A program made the position numbers and the translations under genes. From Candidatus Izimoplasma sp. HR2 (lineage in GTDB: Bacteria > Bacillota_I > Bacilli_A > Izemoplasmatales > Izemoplasmataceae), in the NCBI GenBank assembly GCA_000753575.1, contig JRFF01000009.1:1-64000 (forward strand): DNA of 64,000 nucleotides. Reading direction: 5' to 3'. Positions 25,481 to 57,378 of this stretch are shown piece by piece. The notes below the pieces were generated by a model. That model was not told where the DNA came from, ran no database searches, and worked only from the letters and a program-made list of their open reading frames with translations. Positions within the stretch are counted from its first letter, which is position 1; every line of letters starts with the position of its first letter.

Positions 25481-25481
25481 T

Positions 25482-32114: not shown

Positions 32115-32124
32115 ATAAACCTCC

Positions 32125-32326
32125 ATAAAAAACAGCCCTCGCAAGGACTGTTCATTTTTCTCCCTTGGTTTCTTAATTATATTATATCATAAATTATTAT
32201 AAATAACAGGTCATATAAGACCCAAAAGAAAAAGCCCAAGAGGGCTTTGTTATACTATGCATATCGTTAGTTGCAACTATTTGTGATACGGCTCGTTGTA
32301 ACGCATTTAGTTGCAACTTATTATGA
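32125..32326 (-). promoter_or_regulatory. Terminator-promoter-leader cassette, copy C (PHP-ATPase operon)
   Basis: In gene direction: GTTGCAACTA...TAGTTGCAA inverted ends around ACAACGAGCCGTATCAC (32269-32313); terminator AAAGCCCTCTTGGGCTTT plus T run (32229-32250); promoter TATGATATAAT (32180-32192); leader hairpin AACAGTCCT/AGGGCTGTT with TTTTTT (32127-32152) ending directly at the GGAGG ribosome site. Confidence 0.75.
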
Positions 32327-32394: not shown

Positions 32395-33486
32395 TCACTT
32401 ATTCCACTCGTCCATAAGTAATGCGAATCTATCTTGAACAACACTTTGATTTGCAATTGGTTTTGCTATGTTTAATCTTCTTACAATTGTAGGCTCATTT
32501 TTAGCATCAATCTCAAGACTATTGTTAACCTCTCGGACAACAGTAATATTACTATTGTCAAAAATACTGCTATCAAATGGCACACACGCATTTGGATTAT
32601 GAAAAACAAATAATCCATCTGTTAATTGCTCTTCATTATCTGACTTTACTTCTTGAAATAGATATTGTACCTGATTGTCATTGCTATGTGTATCTCTTAT
32701 TAAATAAACATTATTGTTGGAATATTCTCCAGAACTGATATGTAGCGAAACAAGTTTTCCTATGGTTAAACTTGAACTAAAAATGACTGCAGCTACATCT
32801 TTAAAGTCTGATTTATTAAAAAGATTAACATCAATTTTAGAATCAGATCCAATCTTTTCTACTTCGCTTATTTTACTAAAACTCTTAGATTCAATATCGA
32901 ACGAATATCCATACAATAAAGACAACATTGCATAATAATACTCTTTCCCGTAATTAATATCATCGTATGAAGCAAGTGCAACTAAAAATGGAGCATCATC
33001 CTTTACATGCTCTTTACTCTTGTATGAATTTACGTATTTATTCTTTTTAGATGTCAATGCATTTGAACATCTCACAATGGACTCGTTAATTAGAGTACTA
33101 TAATCATTCAATAACCATGGTGGGTTTAATGATTCTATTACATCTTTAAAGTTTCTTGCTTCTTCCGGTTGTCCACTATGTTTTATATTAGCAACAACCG
33201 CTTCTACATAAAATCTGTTTTCCCCTTTAATGATAAAATCTGGCACTTGTTGTGTAAAATCAATTTCTAATCCACAATCTACAAAAACTCTATACAAAAA
33301 CAATTCCCAAAAAACTGAATGAAATGTAGTCTGAAACTCTTTAACAATTTTATTGTCTCTATCTACAAAGTCTTTTGCCCAATTATTTATAATATATTTA
33401 TATTCGCTTAAGTCATCCTTTATAAATTTAAACTTTTTATGATATTTAGATGGATCTAAATCATCTATTGTCTTAAAAAAATCCAT
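32395..33486 (-). CDS. Putative PD-(D/E)XK nuclease-like protein
   Basis: 363 aa. An early WELFLYRVF helix (Glu61) is followed by QQVPDFII (Asp83) and RFYVEAVVAN (Glu95), the order seen in PD-(D/E)XK nucleases, but the third position is Val instead of Lys, so activity is uncertain. The remaining 250 residues are unassigned. It begins 35 bases after the HerA gene in the same direction with an AAAGGAAG ribosome site and is probably the third gene of that operon. Confidence 0.6.
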   Translation of the reverse strand: MDFFKTIDDLDPSKYHKKFKFIKDDLSEYKYIINNWAKDFVDRDNKIVKEFQTTFHSVFWELFLYRVFVDCGLEIDFTQQVPDFIIKGENRFYVEAVVANIKHSGQPEEARNFKDVIESLNPPWLLNDYSTLINESIVRCSNALTSKKNKYVNSYKSKEHVKDDAPFLVALASYDDINYGKEYYYAMLSLLYGYSFDIESKSFSKISEVEKIGSDSKIDVNLFNKSDFKDVAAVIFSSSLTIGKLVSLHISSGEYSNNNVYLIRDTHSNDNQVQYLFQEVKSDNEEQLTDGLFVFHNPNACVPFDSSIFDNSNITVVREVNNSLEIDAKNEPTIVRRLNIAKPIANQSVVQDRFALLMDEWNK

Positions 33487-33521: not shown

Positions 33522-35171
33522 TTATCTTTTCTTCCACGGTTCTAATAATCTATCAAAATCCAAGGTCTCCCATTCTTTTTTCCATTCTTCCAAAAACATA
33601 ATATCATTTGATTTAGGTTGTGGACTACATCTGTCAATTAAAACTAAAGTTGGAAGATTTATTGCTTCACCTATAAGTAAAGCTTCTCCAGATTTCAAAA
33701 CAGGTAGTAGATTAGTAATTGAACCTAGTGTATCAGGAAGTAATTTCTTAACATAATTTTGATCATCTGGATTTGTAAGTCTCATTGACACAAAATTATT
33801 ACATTGTGAAAATATTGTTTCAGATATTTCACTTGGTCTTTGGCTTACAATACCAAGAGTGACACCATATTTTCTTCCCTCTTTCGCGATTCTTTCAATA
33901 GATGTCCTTGATGCTCTGAATCTTTCCAAGTTACTCCTTGGTACATATTTATGAGCCTCCTCGTAAACTAATAGTAAAGGAATTTCATTTGAACCTTCTT
34001 CTCTTACTTTAGAATAATAAAACCCAAACTCAAACAAAATTCTTGAGATTAAAGAAACAGATATACTTAAAACTTCGAATGGTATCCCACTTAAATTAAA
34101 AACTGTAATATTAGAGTTTTGATTTGTTACATAACCTACAAATCTTCGAATAACTTCCTCAAAAGTGATGCTTCTAGTATCTTCACCTAAAATAAACTCT
34201 AGTCTTTTGTCATTTAATTTATTTTCGAGTCTACTAACAAAATTGGATAGTTTACCATTTAAAGGACCAGCTTTAGGACCCCTAGTGCCTTGTATAGTTT
34301 CCTCGTTCTTTGCTTTTATATTTTCATAAACCGCGTAGATATCAAAAAGCAAAGGAGAATCATAATGAATTCGATCCAACTCTTCTTCTGAACCAGTAAA
34401 CAAATTCTTTTTCGACTCTATTACATACTCTTTAAATACGTTCCTTTGATTATGGTCATTTGCCTCAGTATCAATAAATAGTTCTTCAAGTTCTTCACTA
34501 TTTAACATCCAAAATGGTAATACAAGTTCAGAAATATCTATATGATTACCGTTTGGAAATGCACTAGGGTACTCCCCATGTATGTCAAACAAAACTATAT
34601 GAGAATTGTTTAAACCTTCATAACCATCATTTTTCATAGTAATAGCTTTTTGTAGAATTTTTGCAACCGTATGAGATTTTCCTGAACCCGTAGCTCCAAC
34701 TATAGCAAAGTGTTTGTTAAAGAACTTATTTCCATTCATTTGAACAGGTACATTTGAGTTTTTCGGTAATGTCGAAAACTCAAAAATATCATTCACATTT
34801 ATTCCAGATTTATATATCATAGATAATTCCTCATTCGACAAAATAGAAATACCTGTTTGTGGTGGTAAAGGTATCCCATTTATACCTCTATTAAAGGTTA
34901 CATTGCTTTCATCAAACAATAAACTACCAAATAGTTTTACCTTAATTGTGAAAATCACTCTTTCTGCTTCACTTTCTTCAGAATCATTATTAATAGACTT
35001 TATTCTATAATCATCTATGATTCCCACACCAAAATTTATACCATTATCGTCAAAAGGTATCTTGATAAAACTACCTAATGAGAATTGATTCTCAAACTCA
35101 TCAGCATCTAAAATTTCTATTTCAACTTCACTAGAATTTACACCTGAAATTCTAAAATTATCAGAATTCAT
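33522..35171 (-). CDS. HerA-family ATPase
   Basis: 549 aa. The N-terminal 130 residues fit a HAS-barrel. Then come Walker A IVGATGSGKSHTV (residues 157-169), Walker B LLLVYEEAHKYVPR (about 396-409), and the arginine-finger region IERIAKEGRKYGVTLGIVSQRPSEI. HerA is a hexameric DNA translocase that works with a nuclease. Its ATG overlaps the stop of the DUF4297-like gene (ATGA), the same pairing as in the known DUF4297-HerA anti-phage systems. Confidence 0.87.
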   Translation of the reverse strand: MNSDNFRISGVNSSEVEIEILDADEFENQFSLGSFIKIPFDDNGINFGVGIIDDYRIKSINNDSEESEAERVIFTIKVKLFGSLLFDESNVTFNRGINGIPLPPQTGISILSNEELSMIYKSGINVNDIFEFSTLPKNSNVPVQMNGNKFFNKHFAIVGATGSGKSHTVAKILQKAITMKNDGYEGLNNSHIVLFDIHGEYPSAFPNGNHIDISELVLPFWMLNSEELEELFIDTEANDHNQRNVFKEYVIESKKNLFTGSEEELDRIHYDSPLLFDIYAVYENIKAKNEETIQGTRGPKAGPLNGKLSNFVSRLENKLNDKRLEFILGEDTRSITFEEVIRRFVGYVTNQNSNITVFNLSGIPFEVLSISVSLISRILFEFGFYYSKVREEGSNEIPLLLVYEEAHKYVPRSNLERFRASRTSIERIAKEGRKYGVTLGIVSQRPSEISETIFSQCNNFVSMRLTNPDDQNYVKKLLPDTLGSITNLLPVLKSGEALLIGEAINLPTLVLIDRCSPQPKSNDIMFLEEWKKEWETLDFDRLLEPWKKR

Positions 35172-36337
35172 GACAACACCTCCATAATTTGTTTAGTATT
35201 CAATCCTTTTATTGTATATACATCACAACTCTCTTTTGTCTTGTTATCACTCCAATTAAAATATATCATTTTCCAATTAAAATAATCGTCAAGACTTAAT
35301 CGATCAAAGTTTTCTTCTTTTATTATCCTTAAATTATAAGATATTTTACTTAAATAAATAGTAACTGTTCCATTCGCTTTCTTACGTCTATATATCATTG
35401 GAGGTTTTAAAAATTGATTCTTACTAAATAATATATCCTCAAACCCATCATTATATACGTTATTAAGTTGAAGCAATTCACTTTTTATATCAAGTATATT
35501 TAAGCTATTTGATATAACAAAAGTAAGTGGTTTTATTGTGTATGATGCTTTATTATAGTGATTATCATTTATTTCACGTATCATATTCCCTATTGAAAGA
35601 CTAGAATCATCCACATCACCAATAAATACAATGTTTTGCATTCTCCTATTTACTTTTAATACGTTTTTCCTTAAGTGTTTAACATATTTCTCAATACTCT
35701 GGTTTTCAGAGAAAACTTTATTGAAAATCATATTTCTTCCCTTGTTTATATGATTAAACAGTTCTCTTTTTGATGTCTTTCTATTCTTAACTTCATGCAA
35801 ACTATTCTTTGTTATTTTTTTAAAAAGATAATCTACCATCATCGAATAGATGAACTCAACTTCATTATTGCTATAATCTAAATATGGTAAGTTAAGATAT
35901 TGAATAATTGATTTATACTGTTCTTGAATATTAGGTGCGTTAACAAGTTTGAATTTAGTAAGAAACTTCTCTAATATTTCTGTTGAATATTCTGATATAT
36001 CTTTCCCAAGAACTTTTTTTAATTTCACAACACAAAACTCCGAGAAATAATCATCATAGCCATTTTTATTAGCGAAATATGTGAATAGATAGTAACTCTT
36101 CTCTTGGTGTTTTTCAAATTCGTTAATTAATTGCTTTATTGGGTCCCTTAATACACTAGGTACTAATTTTGTTTTTTCTCGATATTTCACCTGCATAACC
36201 CATGAGTCTGCATCTATATCTTGTATATTTTCAAGATATATTTGTTGATTTTGATTTTCACAATGCAATATTTCAAATAAAGCTTTATCAATTTGGTATT
36301 CAAATCCTCTTAAAGCAAAGTATCCTCCATCGTCCAT
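35168..36337 (-). CDS. DUF4297-like nuclease partner of HerA
   Basis: 389 aa from the second ATG (36337), which has GGAGG 6 bases upstream; the first (36349) overlaps that ribosome site. The N-terminus GGYFALRGFEYQIDKALFEIL followed by IYLENIQDID...WVMQVKYRE (Glu36, Asp40/42, Gln49-x-Lys51) is the nuclease core found in DUF4297/Cap4-type proteins. The C-terminal half is unassigned. Predicted to cut DNA when assembled with HerA. First gene of the operon and driven by cassette copy D. Confidence 0.75.
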   Translation of the reverse strand: MDDGGYFALRGFEYQIDKALFEILHCENQNQQIYLENIQDIDADSWVMQVKYREKTKLVPSVLRDPIKQLINEFEKHQEKSYYLFTYFANKNGYDDYFSEFCVVKLKKVLGKDISEYSTEILEKFLTKFKLVNAPNIQEQYKSIIQYLNLPYLDYSNNEVEFIYSMMVDYLFKKITKNSLHEVKNRKTSKRELFNHINKGRNMIFNKVFSENQSIEKYVKHLRKNVLKVNRRMQNIVFIGDVDDSSLSIGNMIREINDNHYNKASYTIKPLTFVISNSLNILDIKSELLQLNNVYNDGFEDILFSKNQFLKPPMIYRRKKANGTVTIYLSKISYNLRIIKEENFDRLSLDDYFNWKMIYFNWSDNKTKESCDVYTIKGLNTKQIMEVLS

Positions 36338-36353
36338 ATAATCCTCCATTAAA

Positions 36354-41191: not shown

Positions 41192-42229
41192 CTAAGTGTA
41201 TTTCTTTTCAAATAGTTGTTTAATGAGTGGTGCATTATTTACTAAGTCTAAAGTTAAATCAGCATGTCCCTCTGTATATCCATTACCAATAATCATCTTA
41301 ACGTCACTTCCAATACCTTCAGCGCCAAGAGCCGCTTTAGTAAATGAAGTTGCCATACTAAAGAAATACACAATACCAGTATCTTTAGTACTTAAGATAC
41401 AACCCATCTCAGTATTAGGAACATTAACTACATTAATAGTAACGTCAACTTGTTCACCGTTAATTGCCATAATCTTTTCATATACGTCAAGTGCATCAGT
41501 TGCGTCAGCCATAACTACGTCATCACATAACTCTAAATCTCTAAGTTCTAATATTTGATTAGCTTCATTAACTACACCAATTACAGTTCCGTTAATCCCA
41601 GCTTTTTTCATAGCTTGATAAGCACATAATACTCCGCTCTTTCCAGCGGCACCTATTATAGCTACTGAATCTCCTTCTTTTACTAACTTATCAACTTGAG
41701 CAGGAGCTCCCGCAACATCAAGTGCAGCGAGCACTAGATGTTCATCCATATCACTTGGAACTTTCGCAAATATTCCAGTTTCAAATAATATAGCTGTTCC
41801 ATCAATATTTACTTGATCATTACTTATATTTATATTATTAATTTTATTAATTAAAAGAGGTGTTAAAGATAAAGAAACTAAAGTTGCTATTTTATCTCCT
41901 ACTTTTAAAGATTGATCAGGAAATAACTTCCCTACTTCTTTAACCTTACCAATTAACATCCCACCACTACCAGTAACAGGATTTTGCATTTTACCTCTGT
42001 CTTTTACAATATTTAAAATCATTTCTTCCATTTTTACAACATCACTATTACAAGCATTCTTTATTTGAGTAAAAGAAGCTGAATCAATATTTAATGTAAT
42101 AACATCTATTAATAATTCATTATCTTTAACTACCATTGTATTATCAATCTTAGTCGCTGCTTGAGGTAATACTCCTTTTGGAGTTATTACTCTGTTAGTA
42201 CCGTATTTACATAATTTTTCCATAATCAT
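41192..42229 (-). CDS. kdd: L-erythro-3,5-diaminohexanoate dehydrogenase
   Basis: 345 aa with a quinone-oxidoreductase-like fold: GSGGMLIGKVKEVGKLFPDQ, then the nucleotide-binding AIIGAAGKSGVLCAYQAMKKAG near residues 190-211. Oxidises 3,5-diaminohexanoate to 3-keto-5-aminohexanoate with release of ammonia and reduction of NAD(P). Its start overlaps the kce stop by one base (TAATG), so the two are coupled. Confidence 0.9.
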   Translation of the reverse strand: MIMEKLCKYGTNRVITPKGVLPQAATKIDNTMVVKDNELLIDVITLNIDSASFTQIKNACNSDVVKMEEMILNIVKDRGKMQNPVTGSGGMLIGKVKEVGKLFPDQSLKVGDKIATLVSLSLTPLLINKINNINISNDQVNIDGTAILFETGIFAKVPSDMDEHLVLAALDVAGAPAQVDKLVKEGDSVAIIGAAGKSGVLCAYQAMKKAGINGTVIGVVNEANQILELRDLELCDDVVMADATDALDVYEKIMAINGEQVDVTINVVNVPNTEMGCILSTKDTGIVYFFSMATSFTKAALGAEGIGSDVKMIIGNGYTEGHADLTLDLVNNAPLIKQLFEKKYT

Positions 42230-43050
42230 TACACCTTTAATCCTAATATTTTTCTAGTCTCATTTGGACTCGCTATCTCTCGTCCATAAGTTTTAGCTAT
42301 TCTTACTACTTCTTCTACTAAAGCTTTATTACCGAGGGCTTTTACACCTTTACTTATATATATATTATCTTCAAGTCCAACTCTTACGTGACCTCCATGT
42401 TTAATTGAAAGTTCAGCTAGTTTAAACTCAAATCTTCCAACACCTGCGACACTATATGTCGCATTACTTGGAATACTATCTTTTAAGAATAAGAAATCTC
42501 TTTCTTCACCTGTCATTCCCCCAGGAATTCCAAGCACAAAACTAAAATGAAGATGGTCTTTAATAAGACCTTTTTTATATAATCTTAATACTTGATCTAC
42601 ATGCATTTTCCCAAAACATTCAAGTTCTGGTAAAATACCTTTCTCATAAATCTTTTCAGCAAAATATATAACATCATTTTCACTATTAATAAATACTTCA
42701 TCCCCACCAAAATTCACACTTCCACAGTCAAGAGTGCACATTTCAGGTTTTAAATAAATAGGTTGAAGTCTTTCATCATTACTCATTCCTACTGCCCCAC
42801 CTGTTGAAGGCTGAATAATAACGCCAGGACATAACTCTTTAATAGCAATAATCGCTTCATCAAATCTTTTAACGTTTTGTGTAGGAGTACCGTCATCTTC
42901 TCTAACGTGAAGATGAATAATACTAGCACCAGCTTTATAAGCGTTATAAGCTTCAATAGCCATTTCTTCTACTGTGTAAGGTACATAAGGATTATCTTCT
43001 TTTGTTACTTCTGCGCCAGAGATGGCGCAGGTAATAATTAGCTTTTCCAT
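42229..43050 (-). CDS. kce: 3-keto-5-aminohexanoate cleavage enzyme
   Basis: 273 aa, BKACE (DUF849) family. Metal-binding His residues appear in IIHLHVREDDGTPTQ (about 46-60), Glu/His in later strands (ECFGKMHVDQV, LSIKHGGHVRVGLEDNIYISKG). Condenses 3-keto-5-aminohexanoate with acetyl-CoA to give 3-aminobutyryl-CoA and acetoacetate. Flanked by kal and kdd as in other lysine fermenters, which supports this substrate among the many BKACE activities. Confidence 0.93.
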   Translation of the reverse strand: MEKLIITCAISGAEVTKEDNPYVPYTVEEMAIEAYNAYKAGASIIHLHVREDDGTPTQNVKRFDEAIIAIKELCPGVIIQPSTGGAVGMSNDERLQPIYLKPEMCTLDCGSVNFGGDEVFINSENDVIYFAEKIYEKGILPELECFGKMHVDQVLRLYKKGLIKDHLHFSFVLGIPGGMTGEERDFLFLKDSIPSNATYSVAGVGRFEFKLAELSIKHGGHVRVGLEDNIYISKGVKALGNKALVEEVVRIAKTYGREIASPNETRKILGLKV

Positions 43051-43433
43051 TAGTATCTTTGACTGTCTTTAGGAACAATACACGTCCCACTTGCTTTTGC
43101 TACTAATACTTTTTCCTTAAGTACATGTGCAGCTGAAGCACTAATACTAGGGATAGCTTCAATTACTTTATATGCTTCAAACTCCATTTTGCGGGATGTA
43201 TTACCTAATTCCTTAATCCACCCTGATACTTCTATATAATCTCCCGCATATAACGGAGCTAAAAAATCAACACTTTGATAAGCTCTAAATAATCCTTCAT
43301 CGCCATCATTTCTAATTAACAACTCTGTTGCTACATCTCCAAATATTTGCATTATGAAAGCTCCGTCAACGAGTCCACCACCATAATGCGCTTGATGTGC
43401 ACTAAGTCTCATTCTTAAAGTTACTTTTTCCAT
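43050..43433 (-). CDS. kal: 3-aminobutyryl-CoA ammonia-lyase
   Basis: 127 aa, a single hot-dog fold domain, the normal size for Kal. The segment [59 protein letters not shown] covers the active-site helix and CoA-binding strands. Removes ammonia from 3-aminobutyryl-CoA to give crotonyl-CoA. GGAGG ribosome site; its stop touches the kce start. Confidence 0.92.
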
Positions 43434-43435
43434 AA

Positions 43436-44098
43436 TTAAACCTCCACTTTCATTTTAATTGGTTCATTCACTATTAAATTCGCTTCTGTTGCGTTTTTGA
43501 TCTCTTCTATTGTGTACTCTGGATTATATTCAATTAAATGAATACCGTCCTCTTTTATAGCCATTACGCCCATCTCGGTCACTATCATATTAACTTGATT
43601 CTTTGCAGTTAGAGGTAATGTACATGCTTTTAAGATTTTAGGTCTACCTTTGTTAGTATGTGTCATTGCTATAATTACTTTTTTAGCACCAGTTACTAAG
43701 TCCATAGCTCCACCCATTCCAGGAACCATTTTTCCTGGGATGATCCAGTTAGCAAGGCTACCTGTTTCATCTACTTGTAGACTACCTAATACTGTGACAT
43801 CAACATGTCCTCCTCTTATTATTGAGAAAGATAGTGTTGAATCAAAATACATACCACCTTCCAAGAGTGTAACTGGCTGACCTCCAGCGTTCGTTATATC
43901 TCTATCAAAATTGACTTCATTTGGCTTAGGTCCAAGACCTATAAGTCCATTCTCACTTTGTAAATTTATTGTAATATCGTCAGGTAAGAAATTAGCTACT
44001 AAAGTTGGAAGTCCAATTCCTAAATTTACAACGTCATTATCTTTAAATTCTTTCGCAACTCTCGCTGCGATAAAATTTCTAGTTTGTAGTTTATCCAT
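43436..44098 (-). CDS. atoA: Butyrate/acetoacetate CoA-transferase, beta subunit
   Basis: 220 aa. The catalytic glutamate lies in [12 protein letters not shown] near residues 47-58, and [23 protein letters not shown] and GMGGAMDL are family signatures. With the alpha subunit it activates acetoacetate from the Kce step using butyryl-CoA, feeding acetyl-CoA formation and releasing butyrate. Directly followed by kal. Confidence 0.92.
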
Positions 44099-44746
44099 TT
44101 ATAATTCCTCCTTAATAACGTAGTCCACAAAAATATGAGGAGTCATTACATTGTCAGGATCAATTCTTTTTATTATTTCTCTAGCTCCAACTATTACAAG
44201 GTCTGTCGCTGTTGCCATAACTGGGTTAAAGTTTCTAGTTGTTTTTGTATATACTACATTTCCATATTCATCAACTGTAGTACCTTCTAAAATAGCTAAG
44301 TCAGCGCGCAAAGGTAACTCTAATATAAAGTCTTTACCGTTAGTATTTATAATTTGTTTACCTTCTTCAACGATAGTTCCTATCCCTGTAGGAGTTAAAA
44401 TACCACCAAGTCCTGCACCACCTGCTCTAATTCTTTCAGCTAGTGTTCCTTGAGGAATTAAGATACATTCCATTTTACCAGCACTCATCAATTGTCCCGC
44501 TTCTGGGTTTAAACCAATATGTGAAGCAATTAATGTTTTTACTTGACCATTAGTAATCAGTTTTGCGATTCCTTTTCCAGGTAATCCTGCATCATTACAT
44601 ATTAATGTTAAGTCTTTAACTCCAATATTAACTAATTCATCAACAATAAACTCCGGAGTACCTACAACCATAAATCCTCCAACCATTATACTCATTCCGT
44701 CAAATACGTGATCTTTTAAGTTATTTATATTTAGTAATTTTTTCAT
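44099..44746 (-). CDS. atoD: Butyrate/acetoacetate CoA-transferase, alpha subunit
   Basis: 215 aa. Family signatures are FDGMSIMVGGFMVVGTPE near the start, the CoA-site region QGTLAERIRAGGAGLGGILTPTGIGT (about 98-124), and FILELPLRADLAILEG. It ends immediately before atoA, whose GGAGG ribosome site overlaps its 3' end. An AGGT site precedes its own ATG. Confidence 0.92.
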   Translation of the reverse strand: MKKLLNINNLKDHVFDGMSIMVGGFMVVGTPEFIVDELVNIGVKDLTLICNDAGLPGKGIAKLITNGQVKTLIASHIGLNPEAGQLMSAGKMECILIPQGTLAERIRAGGAGLGGILTPTGIGTIVEEGKQIINTNGKDFILELPLRADLAILEGTTVDEYGNVVYTKTTRNFNPVMATATDLVIVGAREIIKRIDPDNVMTPHIFVDYVIKEEL

Positions 44747-44775: not shown

Positions 44776-45198
44776 TTATTTCTTCTCTGGAGGCATAAGT
44801 TCAGCTTCCCCTATTATTACTACTACATCATTTTGGTTCTTAGCTACACAATCAAACCTAACTCTGTTTTTCATTATATCTACATCGGTCACAGTCACTG
44901 TCGCAGTGATTTCATCTTCAAAATAAACAGGTCTTCTAAAACGTAATGATTGTGTTAAATAGATTGAACCTTCACCAGGTAAATCCATTCCAAACACTTT
45001 ACTAAATAATGAACCTACAAGCATCCCATGACTAATTCTCTTTTTAAACATAGTACCCGCGGCATATTCACTATCAAAATGCGCTGGGTTATAATCATTT
45101 GTAACTTCACCAAAAAGCTCAATATCATGCTCAGTTACTTTCTTTACTTGAAATGCAGTATCTCCGATTTTAATTAAATCAATTGTTTTCCCTTTCAT
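44776..45198 (-). CDS. MaoC-like enoyl-CoA hydratase
   Basis: 140 aa. A hot-dog fold MaoC dehydratase with the hydratase-2 motif region DYNPAHFDSEYA...RISHGMLVGSLFSKVFG (residues 35-70; Asp35 and His40 are the expected catalytic pair). It would hydrate crotonyl-CoA, the product of Kal, to (R)-3-hydroxybutyryl-CoA. It is the first gene after the lysine riboswitch, so it belongs to the pathway, although textbook lysine fermentation reduces crotonyl-CoA instead. GTGAGG ribosome site. Confidence 0.85.
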   Translation of the reverse strand: MKGKTIDLIKIGDTAFQVKKVTEHDIELFGEVTNDYNPAHFDSEYAAGTMFKKRISHGMLVGSLFSKVFGMDLPGEGSIYLTQSLRFRRPVYFEDEITATVTVTDVDIMKNRVRFDCVAKNQNDVVVIIGEAELMPPEKK

Positions 45199-45225: not shown

Positions 45226-45257
45226 GAGCCGTTCATGTCAATAGACATAAACAGCTC
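45226..45257 (-). terminator. Riboswitch-controlled terminator of the lysine operon
   Basis: In the RNA: GAGCUGUUUAUGUC, loop UAUU, GACAUGAACGGCUC, 14 continuous pairs with two G-U, then UUUUAUAUU. The 5' arm contains the 3' strand of the aptamer P1 helix (45246-45254), so P1 and this terminator exclude each other. Confidence 0.85.
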
Positions 45258-45420
45258 ATCATTTATAAAATGACAATGAATAAAGTGTGCCTTTATTCAT
45301 CAAGTATCTACAATAAGGACACTGTAGATCTTTCGGCACGTTACTCCTTCTTAGACAGTATTTAGAGTCCTCTCTATTAACATCTGTCTAATACTCAATA
45401 ATGTGCTCCTCTGTATTTAG
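45246..45420 (-). ncRNA. Lysine riboswitch (L-box) of the lysine fermentation operon
   Basis: Reading leftward, the conserved L-box order is present: AGAGGAGCAC, TTGAGTA, a P2 arm TTAGACAG pairing with CTGTCTAA, GAAGGAG, CGTGCCGAAA, a P3 hairpin ATCTACA/TGTAGAT, ACTTG, a P4 hairpin ATGAATAAAG/CTTTATTCAT, TGTCA, and a closing P5/P1 strand. The loops of P2 (AGGAC) and P3 (GTCCT) are complementary, matching the known kissing-loop contact. P1 pairs CTAAATACAG (45411-45420) with CTGTTTATG (45246-45254), imperfectly. The P1 3' strand doubles as the terminator 5' arm. Confidence 0.9.
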
Positions 45421-45443
45421 TTTTCCCCTACAAAATCACTATA

Positions 45444-45473
45444 ATTATATCTTAATATGTAAGCGTTTGTCAA
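45444..45473 (-). promoter_or_regulatory. Promoter of the lysine operon with a cre-like box
   Basis: Reading leftward: -35 TTGACA (45468-45473), 18-bp spacer, -10 TATAAT (45444-45449); predicted start near 45437. Overlapping the -35 and spacer at 45458-45472, the + strand reads TGTAAGCGTTTGTCA, close to the CcpA cre consensus apart from one extra base near the end. Confidence 0.75.
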
Positions 45474-45512: not shown

Positions 45513-45539
45513 AAAAAAGATGGAATTTCCATCTTTTTT
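45513..45539 (-). terminator. Intrinsic terminator of the beta-galactosidase gene
   Basis: Arms AAAAAAGATGG/CCATCTTTTTT with a 5-base loop; it overlaps the stop codon region and can work on both strands. Confidence 0.85.
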
Positions 45540-47886
45540 ACTTAACTTCTATTTCAATTATCTTATTTTTAAAATTGTTTGATGAGACAGTAATTTTAGC
45601 TATTCCAACTGTCCCTTTAGTCTTTAAGAAGAATCCAGTACTCCCACCTAAAAGCGCTAAACTAGGAGGTCCAATTAATTCAAGTGGTCCTGTGACTTTA
45701 ATGTTTATTACTTCAGATGAATAAGTTAAAGGATTCAAAAATTCATCTAAATGTTTAACAATTACTCTAGTAGTTTCATAAGTGTTTATTTCAGTAATAA
45801 CTTTATCATCTTGTTCAAGATATAAATCACTTATATGAGAAGTTCCAATTTCTTTATTTAAAACTAATTTATCATTAAGATATCCTTCAAAACGATAAGT
45901 TGTAGATTCTGCTCCCCATTTACCAACGTATTTTGCATATAATCTTAAAGCATCATCATATGTCATTTTGTTTTTAAATAGAAATCTTTTCAGTTTTATT
46001 TTGTATTTAAGAGGTAAATCTTTACCATGAACCATAATAGCTTTTAAGATATCTTTAATTCGATTTTTATCTCTCTTACTAAATGTTTCATTTTTATGGA
46101 TTTGATTACCAATAAAGTCATCAATAATAACTGGAGGATGTGGTAAATCTTTATACATCTTAGATGGATAAAATTTACCAATTAACTCGTTATCTATAAA
46201 GAATTTTACATAATCAGTATTAGTTAAAACATATACTTGTTTTATTTCACTAGCTTCTTGTTCACCGATATTTAAATTAGATAAAACTTCTAAATATGGA
46301 TTGATATCAGATTGGCTAGAATAAGCTGCTGCAGCGTATTTAGGTATTCTAAACATATCCATAACACCGTGGTAACAAATTCTATCTCCGCTACCAAAAT
46401 CTTTATGAGTATTATAATCAAAAGCACACCAACCAATTGCCCCAGATATACCATTATATTTATATGAATCATTTTGAACTTTCAAATGACGTTTAGCTTG
46501 GTAAACACGATGCCATTCATCATCAAATTTCTTAGTAGGATACATATGTCCATTGTATTCAGTAATTAAATAAGGTACTTTCATTTTAGTAACTTTTTTA
46601 GATTCTTCTAAGCCTTCATTTATACCTCTATGAACGAAGTCATTATATGTATAAACATCTTCAAAAAAGTGACTTCCTTTAAAGTTTCTAACTCCACCTG
46701 TTGGTCTAAACTCATCAAGTGATTTAGCTAAGATATTTGTTTTCTTATAAAACTCATCATTATCTGAAGATTCATTTATTCTTACTCCCCAAATAACTAT
46801 TGATGGATGATTATAATCTCTAAAAATCATTTCTTCAACATTCTTTAAAGCTACTTCTTGCCATTCTTCATTACCTATATGTTGCCATCCAGGCATCTCA
46901 TCAAAGACAAGTAATCCTATCTCATCACATCGATCTAGGAAATGCTTTGAAGGTGGATAGTGACTACTTCTTACTATATTACAACCAAGTTCATACTTAA
47001 GAATATCAGCATCTTTCCTTTGTGCATTTCTTGGCATTGCATAGCCAACATAAGGAAATGATTGATGTCTATTTAATCCTCTTAGTTTAGTATTTTCTCC
47101 GTTAATATAGAATCCTTCAGTTGTAAATTCTACTCTTCTACTTCCAAAAGTTGAAGAGTAAGATAATACATTATCTATTAAAATATCTAAACTATACATA
47201 ACTGGATTATCAATACTCCATCTATCTAAGTCCATTAATTGAGATACTTGAATTTCATCTCTAAAATAGTATTCTCTTTCAAAGCTATTAACTAACTCAT
47301 CACCTTTATAGATATTATAAGTAAATACTTTACTATTCTTTTCATCATAGTTTAAGAACATTTTAATTTCTAAGCTATCTGCGTCGTAATATATAAAAGC
47401 ATGATTAATATAAGATTGTATTTGTTCCTCAATATATACTTCTCTATATATTCCACCATATGTTAAATAATCAACTACAAACCCGTGTGGAGGTATATCT
47501 ATTCTCTCTGTAGAATCAACCATTACAAAAATCTTATTAGATCCATTTATTAAGTTATCAGTTATATCTACATCAAAAGGTGTATACCCACCTTTATGAC
47601 TAATAACATGCTTGTTATTAACATAAACTATAGAATACTCCATAACTCCGTCAAAATGTAAAATGTAGCGTTTACCTTTTTTCTTTTTAAACTCAAAAAC
47701 TTTTTGATAACTACTAATAAATTGGTAAAGTTTTTCAGAGAAATTATTATAAGGTAATTCGATATTTGTATGTGGTATATTTATCTTCTTACTTTTAGGA
47801 AAGTTTTCAATAAATTTCTCGTTATATTTTGGGACATAATCCCAATCATAATTTAAATGAAATACTTTAAGTTTTTGTCTTTTCAT
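45538..47886 (-). CDS. Glycoside hydrolase family 2 beta-galactosidase
   Basis: About 782 aa from the ATG at 47886 (GAGGTGAT upstream); the open frame is 36 bases longer. Sugar-binding and Ig-like N-terminal domains lead to the TIM barrel: RGLNRHQSFPYVGYAMP, then IVWGVRINESSD with the acid/base Glu, then PYLITEYNGHMYP with the nucleophile Glu. It has no signal peptide, so it cleaves lactose or other beta-galactosides in the cytoplasm. It lies downstream of the gal genes and would feed them galactose. Shorter than E. coli LacZ, typical for the GH2 subfamily in Bacillota. Confidence 0.88.
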   Translation of the reverse strand: MKRQKLKVFHLNYDWDYVPKYNEKFIENFPKSKKINIPHTNIELPYNNFSEKLYQFISSYQKVFEFKKKKGKRYILHFDGVMEYSIVYVNNKHVISHKGGYTPFDVDITDNLINGSNKIFVMVDSTERIDIPPHGFVVDYLTYGGIYREVYIEEQIQSYINHAFIYYDADSLEIKMFLNYDEKNSKVFTYNIYKGDELVNSFEREYYFRDEIQVSQLMDLDRWSIDNPVMYSLDILIDNVLSYSSTFGSRRVEFTTEGFYINGENTKLRGLNRHQSFPYVGYAMPRNAQRKDADILKYELGCNIVRSSHYPPSKHFLDRCDEIGLLVFDEMPGWQHIGNEEWQEVALKNVEEMIFRDYNHPSIVIWGVRINESSDNDEFYKKTNILAKSLDEFRPTGGVRNFKGSHFFEDVYTYNDFVHRGINEGLEESKKVTKMKVPYLITEYNGHMYPTKKFDDEWHRVYQAKRHLKVQNDSYKYNGISGAIGWCAFDYNTHKDFGSGDRICYHGVMDMFRIPKYAAAAYSSQSDINPYLEVLSNLNIGEQEASEIKQVYVLTNTDYVKFFIDNELIGKFYPSKMYKDLPHPPVIIDDFIGNQIHKNETFSKRDKNRIKDILKAIMVHGKDLPLKYKIKLKRFLFKNKMTYDDALRLYAKYVGKWGAESTTYRFEGYLNDKLVLNKEIGTSHISDLYLEQDDKVITEINTYETTRVIVKHLDEFLNPLTYSSEVINIKVTGPLELIGPPSLALLGGSTGFFLKTKGTVGIAKITVSSNNFKNKIIEIEVK

Positions 47887-48001
47887 ACTATCACCTCTTA
47901 TTACTTTTAAAAGATTTAACAAATCAAAATTGACATTAAATATTTAAGCTAATATATGTTGCTTAAGGCTATCTAAAACTCTTTATGATATGTATTTATA
48001 G

Positions 48002-48022
48002 CGGTCAAAACTAATTGACCGT
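48002..48022. promoter_or_regulatory. Inverted repeat between galM and the beta-galactosidase gene
   Basis: CGGTCAA/TTGACCG separated by 6 bases, without a strong T run. It could be a weak terminator or operator. The remaining 47887-48217 stretch is extremely A/T rich, with several short inverted repeats (TACATATGTA-like) and no gene. Confidence 0.4.
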
Positions 48023-48217
48023 AATAAATACAATATATTTTTAAATAAATAATAACCTTATTTTACAGTGTTTATTAAGTAAAAATGTCTAATGACCATT
48101 AAATACATAGTTAAATTACATATGTATTAAATAAAATATGTATATTTTCAATATATTTTATATATTTTTGATACATAAAATAGCAATAATTATAGTTGTC
48201 ATTTAATAAATACTTAA

Positions 48218-49258
48218 TTATTTTTTAGATATTTTAAATCTATAAAGAGTCTTATGATAGTACTTTTCATCACTCTTTAAAATACTATTATTTAGTCCCT
48301 TAATATTGATTCCATTTGGCTCGTTTTGTGTCTCAAAACAGATACCTAAATGCTTAACATGTTCTCTACCAAAAAGCAGGTCTTTCATATCAGGATAGTT
48401 ATGTGTATAAACAACAATACAAGGGTAACTTGTATATACTTCTAATTCTCTTTTTGAAATTGGATCTTTTAAAATGATTTGTTTATATTCAAAGCCAACA
48501 TCATCAAGTATAAATGGATGATCTACTCCAAGTGTTGGAATATTATAAACGGCTTCATTTAGGGTTTCTTTAAAATCTCTCTCTTTCTTAAAATCAAATA
48601 TTGTTTCATTTACTGGACTTACTTTATAAGGAACAAACTTATCATCTAGTTCTATATAATTAGATGAATTAACTTGTAATGAATGACTTAATATTTTATC
48701 CTTTATATTTCCTGATAAATTGAAATATGCGTGATTTGTAATATTCAATAATGCATCTTTATCTGTTGTTCCTTCAAACTCTATTAATAGTTGTGTACTT
48801 GAAACTGTATAAGTGATTTTTATTTCTTGATTTCCAGGAAATGAAGATTCACTTTCTTTTTTATGATATTCAAAAATAACTTTAGTAGAATCTTTTAGTT
48901 CTTTCACTTCATAACTAAAGAATTTAAAAGCAAAACAATCACTTCCTGAGTGAAGATTTTCACTTTCTAAAAAGTTCTTTTCTACGTTGATTTCATTATC
49001 ATTTATTACATATTTAGCATCCTTAATGCGACCACTGTTTGGACCTATAGTAGCATTTAAGTACATTTCGTTTTCTATATATGATTCCAAATCATTATAA
49101 GCTAACAATATATTCTCCATAACCCCAGATTCATCAGGAACAAAGATACTCATTATTGTAGCTCCATAATCCATAAAAGTAACTTTTATGTCTTTTTGAT
49201 TTACTTCAATAAAGGTGAACTCTTTATTTCTTACTTTATATTTATTTATTAAGTGCAT
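48218..49258 (-). CDS. galM: Aldose 1-epimerase (mutarotase)
   Basis: 346 aa. Family signatures are NATIGPNSGRIKDAKY, NLHSGSDCFAFKFF, TNHAYFNLSG (catalytic His) and the later Glu in ICFETQNEPNG (catalytic base). Interconverts alpha and beta galactose for GalK. It overlaps the end of galT by 17 bases and belongs to the galK-galE-galT-galM operon. Confidence 0.92.
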   Translation of the reverse strand: MHLINKYKVRNKEFTFIEVNQKDIKVTFMDYGATIMSIFVPDESGVMENILLAYNDLESYIENEMYLNATIGPNSGRIKDAKYVINDNEINVEKNFLESENLHSGSDCFAFKFFSYEVKELKDSTKVIFEYHKKESESSFPGNQEIKITYTVSSTQLLIEFEGTTDKDALLNITNHAYFNLSGNIKDKILSHSLQVNSSNYIELDDKFVPYKVSPVNETIFDFKKERDFKETLNEAVYNIPTLGVDHPFILDDVGFEYKQIILKDPISKRELEVYTSYPCIVVYTHNYPDMKDLLFGREHVKHLGICFETQNEPNGINIKGLNNSILKSDEKYYHKTLYRFKISKK

Positions 49259-50732
49259 TTATTAATAAAGAGATAAACTTGTTAAAATTTTCAATTCCTG
49301 AAGGAGTTTGTTTAAATACTCCAGAATCTTCTAAACATCTCATAAATTTATCTGCGACTTGATCATTGATAAATTTTTCTATCTCTTCACCTTTATATCT
49401 ATCCTTTAATTCTGTTAACCAGTCTTTGTGAATAGCTAATTCTTGAGTCAATTCTACGTTATTTATTAACGCATTTTTAACTGCTTTTAGCTCCTCTTTA
49501 AGTCGAGCAGGTAGTACAGCTAAGCCCATAACCTCTATAAGTCCAATGTTTTCCTTCTTAATATTATGGTGTGTTGGATGAGGATGGAAGATACCTAGTG
49601 GGAACTCACTTGATGTCAAATTGTTTCTTAGTGTCATATCTAGTATATATGTATCCCCATTTTTTCTAGCAATTGGTGTAATTGCGTTATGAGGAACATC
49701 AGTGTTTGAATAAATACCAGATTCTTCATCTGAATAGTTTTCCCAGAATTCAAATAATTTTATTGCTTTATCAATTAATTGTTCTCTATTTGTAGATTCA
49801 AGTCTTATAACACTTAGTGGCCAAACTAAATATTTAAAAGATACTTTTCCAATTTTACTAATAAATACTTCTTTGGCATCTTCGATAGGAAAATGATGTC
49901 TTCCTCCTTGATAATGTTCATGACTTAAAATTGAACCACCAACAATTGGAAGTCCTGCATTAGATCCTAAAAAATAATGAGGGAACATATCTACAAAATC
50001 AAATAATCTTTTAAACGTATTTTCTGAAACATTCATAGGAATATGATCTTTCATTAAAACTATTGAATGTTCATTGTAATATACATAAGGTGAGTACTGA
50101 AGATAGAACTCTTCTTGATTTAAATTTAGTTTAATAATCCTATGATTTGATCTACCAGGATGAGTATTATTTCCATAAAATCCAACGTTCTCTTTGCATA
50201 GTAAACATAGAGGATAATCAGTATCATTTTTACCTGATTGTGCTATGATATCACGAGGATCTTTCTCAGGTTTACTAAGATTAATTGTCATATCTAAAAT
50301 TCCGTATTTAGTAGTTGACTGCCATTTAATATTCTTGGCAATTCTATCATTTTTTATATAATTATTGTCTTGTGACATCTTATAGAAAAAGTCAGTTGCT
50401 TTAACTGGGTTTTCATTGAAAAGGTGGTAAAATGTCTTATTTAAGTCTGATGGAAGTGACGAAAATACGTCCATTAGCTTAGATTCGAATAAATCACGTT
50501 GTTTTGTTGAATTTGGAGTAAAAAGTCTATTATTGTATGCAAAGTCTAAAATTAGGTTAAGTATGATAGACAGTTGTTTTACTCTTTTATTATCATTGCT
50601 TACATAGTGCTGTTGTTTAACCTTTAGTATATCGGTCACGCGATTATACGAATATTCAAAATCCTCGTTTTGAATCAGTCTTTTTTCAATTGCATAGTTA
50701 ATTAGATCAATTATATGATTATTTATCATCAT
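49242..50732 (-). CDS. galT: UDP-glucose:hexose-1-phosphate uridylyltransferase (Firmicutes type)
   Basis: 496 aa, the long class II GalT of Bacillota. The nucleotide-binding and catalytic region includes NTHPGRSNHRIIKL, then ILSHEHYQGGRHHFPIE with the HEH pair. Converts galactose-1-phosphate and UDP-glucose to UDP-galactose and glucose-1-phosphate. Its ATG lies 14 bases inside galE. Confidence 0.94.
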   Translation of the reverse strand: MMINNHIIDLINYAIEKRLIQNEDFEYSYNRVTDILKVKQQHYVSNDNKRVKQLSIILNLILDFAYNNRLFTPNSTKQRDLFESKLMDVFSSLPSDLNKTFYHLFNENPVKATDFFYKMSQDNNYIKNDRIAKNIKWQSTTKYGILDMTINLSKPEKDPRDIIAQSGKNDTDYPLCLLCKENVGFYGNNTHPGRSNHRIIKLNLNQEEFYLQYSPYVYYNEHSIVLMKDHIPMNVSENTFKRLFDFVDMFPHYFLGSNAGLPIVGGSILSHEHYQGGRHHFPIEDAKEVFISKIGKVSFKYLVWPLSVIRLESTNREQLIDKAIKLFEFWENYSDEESGIYSNTDVPHNAITPIARKNGDTYILDMTLRNNLTSSEFPLGIFHPHPTHHNIKKENIGLIEVMGLAVLPARLKEELKAVKNALINNVELTQELAIHKDWLTELKDRYKGEEIEKFINDQVADKFMRCLEDSGVFKQTPSGIENFNKFISLLINALNK

Positions 50733-51717
50733 TTTTGAACCCCTCCTTGTGCAATTGATGGAATCTCCATGCTGACGAGATAATTTCTTTCACATCTTTA
50801 TGTTTCTTTATCCATCCTAGTTCTTTTTCTGCTTTTTGACTAGATGCAATAAGTCTTGCAGGATCTCCAGCTCTTCTATCAGATAATATTGCTGGAATTT
50901 CATGTTTTGTAACCTCTCTTGCAGCTTCGATCATCTCTAGTACACTGTACCCTTCTCCACTACCTAAATTATAGAAATTACTAGTGTTATTTTTCTCTAA
51001 ATTCTTCATTGCAAGAATGTGTGCTTCTATCAAATCTTCTATGTGAATATAGTCTCTAATACATGTCCCATCTGGTGTATCATAATCAGCTCCAAAGATA
51101 CTAATTTTATCTCTTTTTCCAAGAGGAACTTGTAAAATTAATGGAATTAAATGAGTCTCAGGATTATGACTTTCTCCGATTTCTCCAGTGTAATATGCTC
51201 CTGCAACATTGAAATATCTTAGTGCAATATACTTAATTCCGTGTGCAATATCTGCCCATTTCATCATTTTTTCCATAGCTAATTTAGTTTCTCCATACGC
51301 ATTTGTTGGAGTTTCTGTAAATTCTTCAGTTATAGGTGATACATCTTTATCTCCATATACTGCAGCTGTACTACTAAATACTATCCTTTTTACATTAGCT
51401 TGATTCATTGCTTCAAGTAAAACCTTTGTCCCATATACATTATTTTCATAATATTTAAGAGGTACTTGCATACTTTCCCCGACTAAGCTAAAGGCTGCAA
51501 AGTGAATTACTGAATCTATTTTGTTTTTATTAAGAACCTCTACTACTTTATCTAGTTCTCTTATATCGATGTTATAAAAATTAGCTCTTTTATCTATAGC
51601 TTCACTATAACCTGTAGATAAATTATCTATTACTGTAACCTTATATCCTCTTTCAAGTAATATTTTTACTGCATGGCTTCCAATATATCCTGCTCCACCT
51701 GTTACTAATACATTCAT
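50719..51717 (-). CDS. galE: UDP-glucose 4-epimerase
   Basis: 332 aa, short-chain dehydrogenase fold. The NAD-binding motif GGAGYIGSH lies at residues 7-15 and the catalytic YxxxK at YGETK (about 148-152). Interconverts UDP-galactose and UDP-glucose, completing the Leloir cycle. The start overlaps the galK stop (ATGA). Confidence 0.95.
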   Translation of the reverse strand: MNVLVTGGAGYIGSHAVKILLERGYKVTVIDNLSTGYSEAIDKRANFYNIDIRELDKVVEVLNKNKIDSVIHFAAFSLVGESMQVPLKYYENNVYGTKVLLEAMNQANVKRIVFSSTAAVYGDKDVSPITEEFTETPTNAYGETKLAMEKMMKWADIAHGIKYIALRYFNVAGAYYTGEIGESHNPETHLIPLILQVPLGKRDKISIFGADYDTPDGTCIRDYIHIEDLIEAHILAMKNLEKNNTSNFYNLGSGEGYSVLEMIEAAREVTKHEIPAILSDRRAGDPARLIASSQKAEKELGWIKKHKDVKEIISSAWRFHQLHKEGFKNDDK

Positions 51718-52895
51718 AATAAATCCTCACTTTCTAACTTTTTTGCTCCATTACTAGTTTTTACTTTATAGAAATCTGCTTTATGTCCAACTTTATTTAA
51801 GTAATCTTTTTTTACATTTTTAATTACATCATGCACTATATCTGTTTTTACTAGATTTATCGTACAACCGCCAAACCCAGCCCCTGTCATCCTGCTACCA
51901 GCTGCCCCATTTGCTCTAAATGAATCAACTAGAACATCTAATTCTCTACATGAAACTTCATATAAGTCTCTAAGTGAATCATGACTTTCATTCATTAACT
52001 TACCAAATGCTATAAAATCACTTGATCTTAATGCCTCTACTGCTTTCACAGTACGATCATTTTCAAATATTGCATGTTTTATTCTATTGTTAATTATTTT
52101 GTCATCTATAAGATTACTAATCGATTCATAATCTTTCACCAAAATATCACAAAGATTATTAAATTTGATATTTTCATTTTTCAATATCTCAATTCCTTTA
52201 TCACATTCTTCTCTACGTTCATTATATTTAGAATCTGATAAACTCCTTTTTTTATTAGTATTAGCTATAACAAGTGTATATTCCCCTAACTCTAGCGGTA
52301 CAAGCTCATATTCTAAAGTATCAGTATTTAAGTATATTGCTTTATTAACTTCACTCATACCTACTGCGAACTGATCCATTATTCCACAGTTAACTCCTAT
52401 ATACTCATTTTCTACTATTTTAGCTGTTTTTACAATATTAATCATATCAATATCTAAATTATATTCTTCTTTTAGTACAGTCCCAATTAATACCTCTAGT
52501 GAAGCACTAGAAGATAGTCCTGCACCGTTTGGTAAATTACCATATATTAAGATGTTTAATCCACTTTTTATACTATATCCCATATCCACAAAGCTCTCAA
52601 CCATGCCTTTTGCGTAGTTTGCCCAGTTATCTATATTTTTATAACTCATATCTTCTAAAGAAGCTACTCGCTTTCCAAACTTTTTAAAATTTGATGAAAG
52701 AAAATGAAATTCATTATCTTCTCTTTTAGTTACAAATGCGTATGTGCCTAAATTTATTGCAGTAGGGAAAACATTCCCTCCATGATAATCTATATGTTCA
52801 CCAATTAAATTTACTCTTCCTGGTGAAAAATATTTATTTATTTCTTTAGTACCTAGAAAATCTAAATTACTATCTATTATATCTTGAATTTTCAT
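51714..52895 (-). CDS. galK: Galactokinase
   Basis: 393 aa, GHMP kinase. The galactokinase signature FSPGRVNLIGEHIDYHGG lies near residues 23-40, the ATP-binding LPNGAGLSSSASLE near 121-134, and the third motif GSRMTGAGFGGCTINL near 338-353. Phosphorylates galactose. AAGGAG ribosome site; it follows the regulator gene by 21 bases that contain a palindrome. Confidence 0.95.
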   Translation of the reverse strand: MKIQDIIDSNLDFLGTKEINKYFSPGRVNLIGEHIDYHGGNVFPTAINLGTYAFVTKREDNEFHFLSSNFKKFGKRVASLEDMSYKNIDNWANYAKGMVESFVDMGYSIKSGLNILIYGNLPNGAGLSSSASLEVLIGTVLKEEYNLDIDMINIVKTAKIVENEYIGVNCGIMDQFAVGMSEVNKAIYLNTDTLEYELVPLELGEYTLVIANTNKKRSLSDSKYNERREECDKGIEILKNENIKFNNLCDILVKDYESISNLIDDKIINNRIKHAIFENDRTVKAVEALRSSDFIAFGKLMNESHDSLRDLYEVSCRELDVLVDSFRANGAAGSRMTGAGFGGCTINLVKTDIVHDVIKNVKKDYLNKVGHKADFYKVKTSNGAKKLESEDLL

Positions 52896-52907
52896 TATAT
52901 TCTCCTT

Positions 52908-52921
52908 AGTAAAATTTTACT
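52908..52921. promoter_or_regulatory. Palindrome between the LacI-type regulator and galK
   Basis: The perfect 14-bp palindrome AGTAAAATTTTACT spans the regulator's stop codon. It carries the same AGTAAAAT half-site as the larger palindrome at 53.9 kb, so both may bind the regulator. Confidence 0.5.
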
Positions 52922-53915
52922 TTAAAGTTGCTCTATTTACTATTTTAGTTGGAATAACTTTCTTAATCGGAATGATTCTTCCATCAATTTTTTCAAGTAC
53001 AGAATTTAGTGCTTGTTCGCCCATAAATTCTGTGTATACATGTACCGTTGATAATGGCGGATAAGTATATTTAGATGTATGATTATTATTAAATCCAAAT
53101 AACCCTATCTCTTCAGGCACTTTTAGTCCTTTTTCATGTATAGCTCTTAGTGCTCCTATTGCGATTGCATCATTAGCACAAAAGTATACTTCAGCTCTTG
53201 TTTTAGCTTTTAATGCTTCTTTCATTAATTTATATCCAGATTCACTTGAGAATTTACCAACATGAATAAATTTAGTATTTATTAAGCCTTTTTGATATAG
53301 ATAGTCTCTAAATACAAGTTCACGTTTTTCTCCTAGTTTTACACTACTACTTACATGTTCTATACCGCCAATATATCCAATGCGTTTGTAACCTTTTTTT
53401 ATAATTATTTGTAATACATCTCTAACTGCTGTGTTAAAGTCAATAACAACACTATCGAATACATCCTCATTAGGACTAGAATCAACAAATACAATATTAT
53501 TAGTTACTGATTCAAAAGAACTGATTTGAGTTCTAGAGAATTTACCAATACATATCATTCCATTCACTCCAGCAATGGTGTTTAAATCGTACTCTCCATT
53601 ATCTTTGTAGATAAGAACGGTATTTATGTTAGATTTGATAGAAACCTGCTCTATACCTCTTCTAATCTGCATGTAATAAGGATCATCAATTTCTTCGTGT
53701 ATATTGTACCAATGCACAATGGCAATGGTCAACTTATTACTTGATTTAAGTCTTACTCTATTACGAGGAGTTTTGTAGTCCATTTTTATAGCAGTACTAA
53801 TTATCTTTTTCCTGATGTCTTCACTCACACTTAAAGAAGTATCATTGTTTAAAACTCTAGATACAGTTGTTATTGAAACATCAATTTTTTTAGCTATTTC
53901 TTTTAAAGTTGCCAT
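52917..53915 (-). CDS. LacI/GalR-family transcriptional regulator
   Basis: 332 aa. The N-terminal helix-turn-helix and hinge helix read TLKEIAKKIDVSITTVSRVLNND (residues 3-25), followed by a periplasmic-binding-protein-like sugar domain (YIGGIEHVSSSVKLGEKRE, VYFCANDAIAIGALRAI, GLFGFNNNHTSKYTYPPLSTV). Likely the galactose/lactose repressor. It heads the gal gene run, GAGGTGA ribosome site. The ligand (galactose or an allolactose-like sugar) is inferred from its neighbours. Confidence 0.92.
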   Translation of the reverse strand: MATLKEIAKKIDVSITTVSRVLNNDTSLSVSEDIRKKIISTAIKMDYKTPRNRVRLKSSNKLTIAIVHWYNIHEEIDDPYYMQIRRGIEQVSIKSNINTVLIYKDNGEYDLNTIAGVNGMICIGKFSRTQISSFESVTNNIVFVDSSPNEDVFDSVVIDFNTAVRDVLQIIIKKGYKRIGYIGGIEHVSSSVKLGEKRELVFRDYLYQKGLINTKFIHVGKFSSESGYKLMKEALKAKTRAEVYFCANDAIAIGALRAIHEKGLKVPEEIGLFGFNNNHTSKYTYPPLSTVHVYTEFMGEQALNSVLEKIDGRIIPIKKVIPTKIVNRATLK

Positions 53916-57312: not shown

Positions 57313-57346
57313 AACATACAAGTGTAAACGATACAAATGTATGTTA
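57313..57346. promoter_or_regulatory. TetR operator candidate in the divergent intergenic region
   Basis: Inverted repeat with 13-bp arms (ACATACAAGTGTA and TACAAATGTATGT, two mismatches) around AACGA, placed next to a TATTATAAC -10-like sequence. Confidence 0.6.
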
Positions 57347-57378
57347 TTGATATCTATGTATTGAAAGGTGATGATTGT

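What the first reader, a model, noticed from the sequence alone, without database searches (positions are those of the whole stretch)
45226..45420. Lysine riboswitch wired as an ON switch for lysine fermentation
The operon leader carries the L-box landmarks (AGAGG, TTGAGTA, GTGCCGAAA, TGTCA) and a P2/P3 kissing-loop pair (AGGAC with GTCCT). The textbook lysine riboswitch shuts off lysine synthesis or uptake. Here the P1 3' strand (45246-45254) is itself part of the 5' arm of the 14-bp terminator (45226-45257). A lysine-bound aptamer that keeps P1 closed should therefore break the terminator and switch the catabolic operon on. The arrangement is read from sequence; the aptamer family is established knowledge; the ON polarity is inference. 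I cannot check how often lysine-catabolic L-boxes have been described.
Basis: partly seen in the sequence, partly recalled or inferred. Interest (0 to 1): 0.88.

Follow-up and report, generated by a model that had tools for sequence, protein, structure and literature searches.

The report
Lysine ON riboswitch for lysine fermentation
A lysine-sensing RNA sits in front of the lysine-fermentation genes of an Izemoplasma-like bacterium, and its layout implies that lysine switches its own breakdown on; this arrangement is already described for other bacteria, but here it is shown to be near-universal among relatives that carry the pathway.

Summary
RF00168 (lysine riboswitch) matches 45421-45244 on the minus strand at 76.2 bits. 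It lies between a perfect -35/-10 promoter and a complete lysine-fermentation operon. The 3' strand of P1 (45254-45249) lies inside the 5' arm of the 14-bp terminator (45257-45226), so a closed P1 and the terminator exclude each other.

The ON reading is supported by comparison. In 48 of 48 leaders next to kal/kce operons the terminator's 5' arm includes P1's 3' strand. In 0 of 42 lysine riboswitches before transport or biosynthesis genes does it do so; those have a separate downstream terminator, often with an antiterminator. P1 5', P1 3' and the terminator's 3' arm vary together. The window's own genome holds both kinds. All catabolic aptamers group together in a tree, so this is probably one conserved design, not 48 independent events.

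It is not new in kind. Barrick & Breaker 2007 describe ON lysine riboswitches that bury terminator pieces, and Mukherjee 2017 lists lysine riboswitches before kal/kce with positive regulation. Lysine binding and antitermination were not tested here.

The parts
45444..45473 (-). sigma-70 type promoter, TTGACA-18-TATAAT (12 of 12 consensus matches)
45244..45421 (-). lysine riboswitch aptamer (RF00168, full length)
   Evidence: 76.2 bits, E 4.1e-18
45411..45416 (-). P1 5' strand AUACAG
   Evidence: model positions 6-11 alignment
45249..45254 (-). P1 3' strand CUGUUU, shared with the terminator 5' arm
   Evidence: model positions 172-177 alignment
45367..45372 (-). P2 loop GAGGAC of the P2/P3 kissing pair
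45315..45320 (-). P3 loop GUCCUU of the P2/P3 kissing pair
45226..45257 (-). intrinsic terminator, 14 pairs, followed by UUUUAUAUU
44776..45198 (-). first operon gene, MaoC-like dehydratase
43436..44746 (-). two CoA-transferase subunits
43050..43433 (-). kal, 3-aminobutyryl-CoA ammonia lyase
   Evidence: NF052388, over cut-off
42229..43050 (-). kce, 3-keto-5-aminohexanoate cleavage enzyme
   Evidence: NF052387, over cut-off
41192..42229 (-). kdd, 3,5-diaminohexanoate dehydrogenase
   Evidence: NF052381
39920..41179 (-). kamA, lysine 2,3-aminomutase
   Evidence: TIGR03820
38923..39951 (-). kamB, lysine 5,6-aminomutase reactivase subunit
   Evidence: NF052386
36560..38909 (-). kamD and kamE, lysine 5,6-aminomutase alpha and beta subunits
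   Evidence: NF052384, NF052385

Best explanation
A constitutive-looking promoter starts a leader RNA that folds into a lysine aptamer. Without lysine, P1 is short and weak; its 3' strand is taken up by the 14-bp terminator hairpin and RNA polymerase stops before the operon. With lysine bound, P1 is held closed as the nascent RNA emerges, the terminator's 5' arm is buried, and the polymerase reads on into the lysine-fermentation operon. Shown by sequence and comparison: the aptamer, the overlap, the terminator, the operon, the conservation. Inferred: lysine as ligand, the co-transcriptional (kinetic) decision, and the ON response.
For: RF00168 full-length hit between a perfect promoter and a strong terminator. 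P1's 3' strand lies wholly within the terminator's 5' arm. Among catabolic leaders, 48 of 48 have this overlap against 0 of 42 transport/biosynthesis leaders; 27 genomes hold both kinds. At the third and fourth P1 columns from the junction the P1 3' base changes together with both partners (C-G-C to U-A-U; A-U-A to G-C-G), both pairings kept in 81 of 82 cells. The own genome's second lysine riboswitch precedes an amino-acid ABC transporter and has the OFF layout. 47 of 49 kce-bearing genomes of the class have a lysine riboswitch before the operon. Step-wise folding forms the inner P1 pairs at 188 nt and the terminator at about 204-212 nt.
Against: No binding or transcription data. Without ligand the terminator state is about 14.6 kcal/mol better than the P1-closed state in a model that ignores tertiary contacts (-75.6 vs -61.0), so lysine must act kinetically. 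P1's two outer pairs are often not kept in catabolic leaders (15 and 18 of 41). The catabolic aptamers form one group in a tree, so the 48 cases are not independent.
Confidence: 0.9

Rival explanations
1. Ordinary OFF lysine riboswitch: lysine binding promotes the terminator, as in lysC and transporter leaders, and the operon is shut off by lysine.
For: It is the common logic of the family, and the own genome's transporter copy is built this way.
Against: There is no separate terminator and antiterminator here; P1's 3' strand is itself part of the terminator arm. This holds for 48 of 48 catabolic leaders and none of 42 others. OFF control of a degradation pathway by its own substrate would make little physiological sense.
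Confidence: 0.03
2. The terminator is strong enough to form whatever P1 does, so the element is an attenuator with little lysine response, and induction comes from another factor.
For: Terminator about -21 kcal/mol, P1 only 5 pairs with a mismatch.
Against: The aptamer core, the kissing pair and the three-way P1/terminator pairing are conserved across 26 genera in seven families, which is not expected of a non-functional sensor.
Confidence: 0.05
3. The aptamer responds to a different ligand, such as a pathway intermediate (beta-lysine, 3,5-diaminohexanoate), rather than lysine.
For: The catabolic aptamers form their own group, and the base corresponding to A162 of the T. maritima pocket floor is U (45258) in this genus and its near relatives (numbering from PMC3764141, mapped by alignment).
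Against: Full-length match to the lysine model well above its cut-off; other core landmarks are kept. The same base also varies in transporter copies.
Confidence: 0.05

Closest known systems
Lysine riboswitch (L box, LYS element), RF00168
   Same: Full-length aptamer with core landmarks and P2/P3 loop-loop pairing.
   Different: Typical members repress biosynthesis or uptake through an antiterminator; this one has none and the terminator overlaps P1 directly.
ON-logic lysine riboswitches before lysine catabolism genes (C. sticklandii, F. nucleatum, Thermoanaerobacter; PMC5584792, PMC2258182)
   Same: Same aptamer family, same kind of target genes (kal, kce), same predicted ON logic by burying a terminator piece.
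   Different: Different lineage (Izemoplasma-like and related Bacilli) and an operon that starts with a MaoC-like dehydratase and CoA-transferases.
ON-logic adenine and glycine riboswitches
   Same: Ligand binding buries part of a terminator (stated for this group in PMC2258182).
   Different: Different aptamers and ligands.

Membership tests
Lysine riboswitch RF00168 | Covariance-model score above the curated gathering score | tested here: met
   76.2 vs 30 bits, full length
Lysine riboswitch RF00168 | Five-helix junction with conserved core (AGAGG, GAGTA, GCCGAA, TGTCA) | tested here: met
   one pocket-floor base (A162 equivalent) is U
Lysine riboswitch RF00168 | P2/P3 loop-loop pairing | tested here: met
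   6 pairs in the window, covarying among near relatives; not clear in all catabolic members by this alignment
Lysine riboswitch RF00168 | Binds L-lysine | not testable with these tools
   needs in-line probing or similar
ON-logic lysine riboswitch of catabolic operons | Upstream of lysine-degradation genes | tested here: met
   47 of 49 kce genomes of the class
ON-logic lysine riboswitch of catabolic operons | P1 and terminator mutually exclusive, no antiterminator between | tested here: met
   48/48 vs 0/42
ON-logic lysine riboswitch of catabolic operons | Lysine raises read-through | not testable with these tools
   needs single-round transcription
Classical OFF lysine riboswitch | Terminator downstream of P1 with an antiterminator using P1's 3' strand | tested here: not met
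   the layout is seen in the own genome's transporter copy instead

The most novel reading that the evidence does not exclude
The catabolic ON switches form one dedicated lysine-riboswitch lineage that has stayed with the fermentation operon across several families of Bacilli, with a pocket floor retuned in the Izemoplasma group so that it answers only to the high lysine levels worth fermenting.
Probability: 0.25. Interest if true: 0.5.

Novelty: new member of a known kind. Interest (0 to 1): 0.35.

Why it matters
It gives a large, clean natural set in which the same aptamer is wired ON before catabolic genes and OFF before uptake or biosynthesis genes, often in one genome. That makes it a good system for testing how riboswitch polarity is set. 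No experimental test of a natural lysine ON switch turned up in the searches I ran of the held library.

Tried and rejected
The first terminator finder picked long antiterminator-like hairpins in non-catabolic leaders; it was replaced by one that requires a compact stem and an immediate U-tract, then re-run with larger loops and seven added leaders, with the same split. Apparent absence of the riboswitch in eight kce genomes was mostly a filter effect: five were recovered by cmscan and one more when searched alone; two of one genus lack it in the stretch read. Several independent origins of the ON wiring were considered; the tree needs only one change (89/79 support), so the count is not 48 independent events. 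Rodionov 2003 (the source usually cited) and Serganov & Patel 2009 are not held, so their text was not read.

Full report
What is there. The minus strand at 45421-45244 matches the Rfam lysine riboswitch over its full length (76.2 bits, gathering score 30, E 4.1e-18). A promoter-like site that fits the sigma-70 consensus at all 12 positions (TTGACA-18 nt-TATAAT) ends at 45444, just upstream. Downstream lies a run of minus-strand genes that together form the anaerobic lysine-fermentation pathway: a MaoC-like dehydratase, two CoA-transferase subunits, kal, kce, kdd, kamA, kamB, kamD and kamE. The nearest named relatives of its Kce are Izemoplasma-like and other Mycoplasmatota/Bacilli assemblies.

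The key geometry. The covariance-model alignment puts P1 at AUACAG (45416-45411) with CUGUUU (45254-45249): five pairs and one U-U mismatch. The terminator 45257-45226 has 14 pairs, a 4-nt loop and a U-tract; all six bases of P1's 3' strand lie in its 5' arm. The two structures cannot coexist. Folding the growing transcript forms the inner P1 pairs at 188 nt, and the terminator replaces them at about 204-212 nt. At equilibrium without ligand the terminator state is about 14.6 kcal/mol better, so if lysine acts it most likely does so while the RNA is being made (inference).

Comparison across relatives. Forty-nine genomes of the same class carry kce above its cut-off. Forty-seven have a lysine riboswitch in front of the operon: 41 from the first search, five more by direct cmscan, one more when its leader was searched alone. 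I extracted the leaders and found the best terminator in each with one rule for all. In all 46 class leaders scored, plus one Caloramator and one Defluviitaleaceae leader found by cmscan, the terminator's 5' arm includes at least three bases of P1's 3' strand. In none of 42 other lysine riboswitches from these and neighbouring genomes does it do so (Fisher p about 1e-26). By inspection of their translations those 42 precede amino-acid ABC transporter binding proteins (26), diaminopimelate-decarboxylase-like genes (11) and M20-type amidohydrolases (5) (clusters; the names are my reading of one representative each, not a family search). Their terminators start 7-52 nt after P1. Many of the transporter leaders show pairing between P1's 3' region and the terminator's 5' arm better than shuffles, the classical OFF layout; the decarboxylase and amidohydrolase leaders mostly do not show it clearly by this test. 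Twenty-seven genomes hold both kinds, the window's own among them: its second lysine riboswitch, on another contig, precedes a transporter operon in the OFF layout.

Covariation. In 41 catabolic leaders, at the third and fourth P1 columns from the junction, the 3'-strand base changes together with both its P1 partner and its terminator partner (C-G-C 25, U-A-U 10, C-G-U 5; A-U-A 27, G-C-G 8, A-U-G 5, G-U-A 1), so that both pairings are kept in 81 of 82 cells. The outer two P1 pairs are kept in fewer than half, while the terminator pairs there are kept in 39 of 41. The P2/P3 kissing pair also covaries among near relatives.

Caveat on counting. A tree of the aptamers without P1's strands puts all 41 catabolic aptamers on one side of a branch (89/79; 91% of bootstrap trees). 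The perfect split is therefore best read as one ON design conserved over 26 genera in seven families, not as 48 independent inventions. The p-value above ignores this.

What is known. Barrick and Breaker (PMC2258182) state that certain lysine riboswitches with ON logic bury pieces of terminator stems upon ligand binding, citing Rodionov et al. 2003 (not held here). Mukherjee et al. (PMC5584792) list lysine riboswitches before kal and kce in C. sticklandii, F. nucleatum and two Thermoanaerobacter species and say these genes are positively regulated. The finding is thus a new member of a known kind. My searches of the held library found no experimental test of a natural lysine ON riboswitch; that library omits most subscription journals.

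Open points. In this genus and near relatives the base corresponding to A162 of the T. maritima pocket floor (PMC3764141) is U (45258); other catabolic leaders keep A and transporter copies often have G. Whether this shifts affinity is unknown; the mapping between numbering schemes rests on the alignment and on my own recollection of the T. maritima sequence.

Noticed in passing
window 33522-36349, minus strand: DUF4297-family protein followed by a HerA-type helicase, a known anti-phage pair, right after the lysine operon; scores are below NCBIfam's curated cut-offs but strong.
   Followed up: partly
window 32395-33486, minus strand: Protein with no Pfam or NCBIfam match but a strong PADLOC match to PD-T7-5 (2.6e-71), making this a likely defence island.
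   Followed up: partly
window 29703-32144, 24869-25546 and 23713-24747, minus strand: Weaker defence-like matches: mad3-like large protein, TIR-like ThsB match, DpdF-like C-terminal match.
   Followed up: partly
window 45258: Base corresponding to the lysine pocket-floor A162 is U in this genus and close relatives' catabolic riboswitches.
   Followed up: partly
L114 1801-2196 and L154 1631-3209: Two lysine riboswitches close together in one genome (G062, about 80 nt apart in tandem; G208, about 1.3 kb apart) before biosynthesis-type genes.
   Followed up: no
L165 125-294 and L166 5986-6155: Cobalamin riboswitch about 3 kb upstream of the lysine riboswitch in two relatives; the pathway's lysine 5,6-aminomutase is B12-dependent.
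   Followed up: no
window 57337-60408, plus strand: AcrB/AcrD/AcrF-type RND transporter (1023 aa) in an Izemoplasma-like genome, next to a TetR-family regulator.
   Followed up: no
window 45538-53915, minus strand: Galactose gene cluster (GH2 glycosidase, aldose epimerase, galT, epimerase, galactokinase, LacI regulator) directly upstream of the lysine operon.
   Followed up: partly
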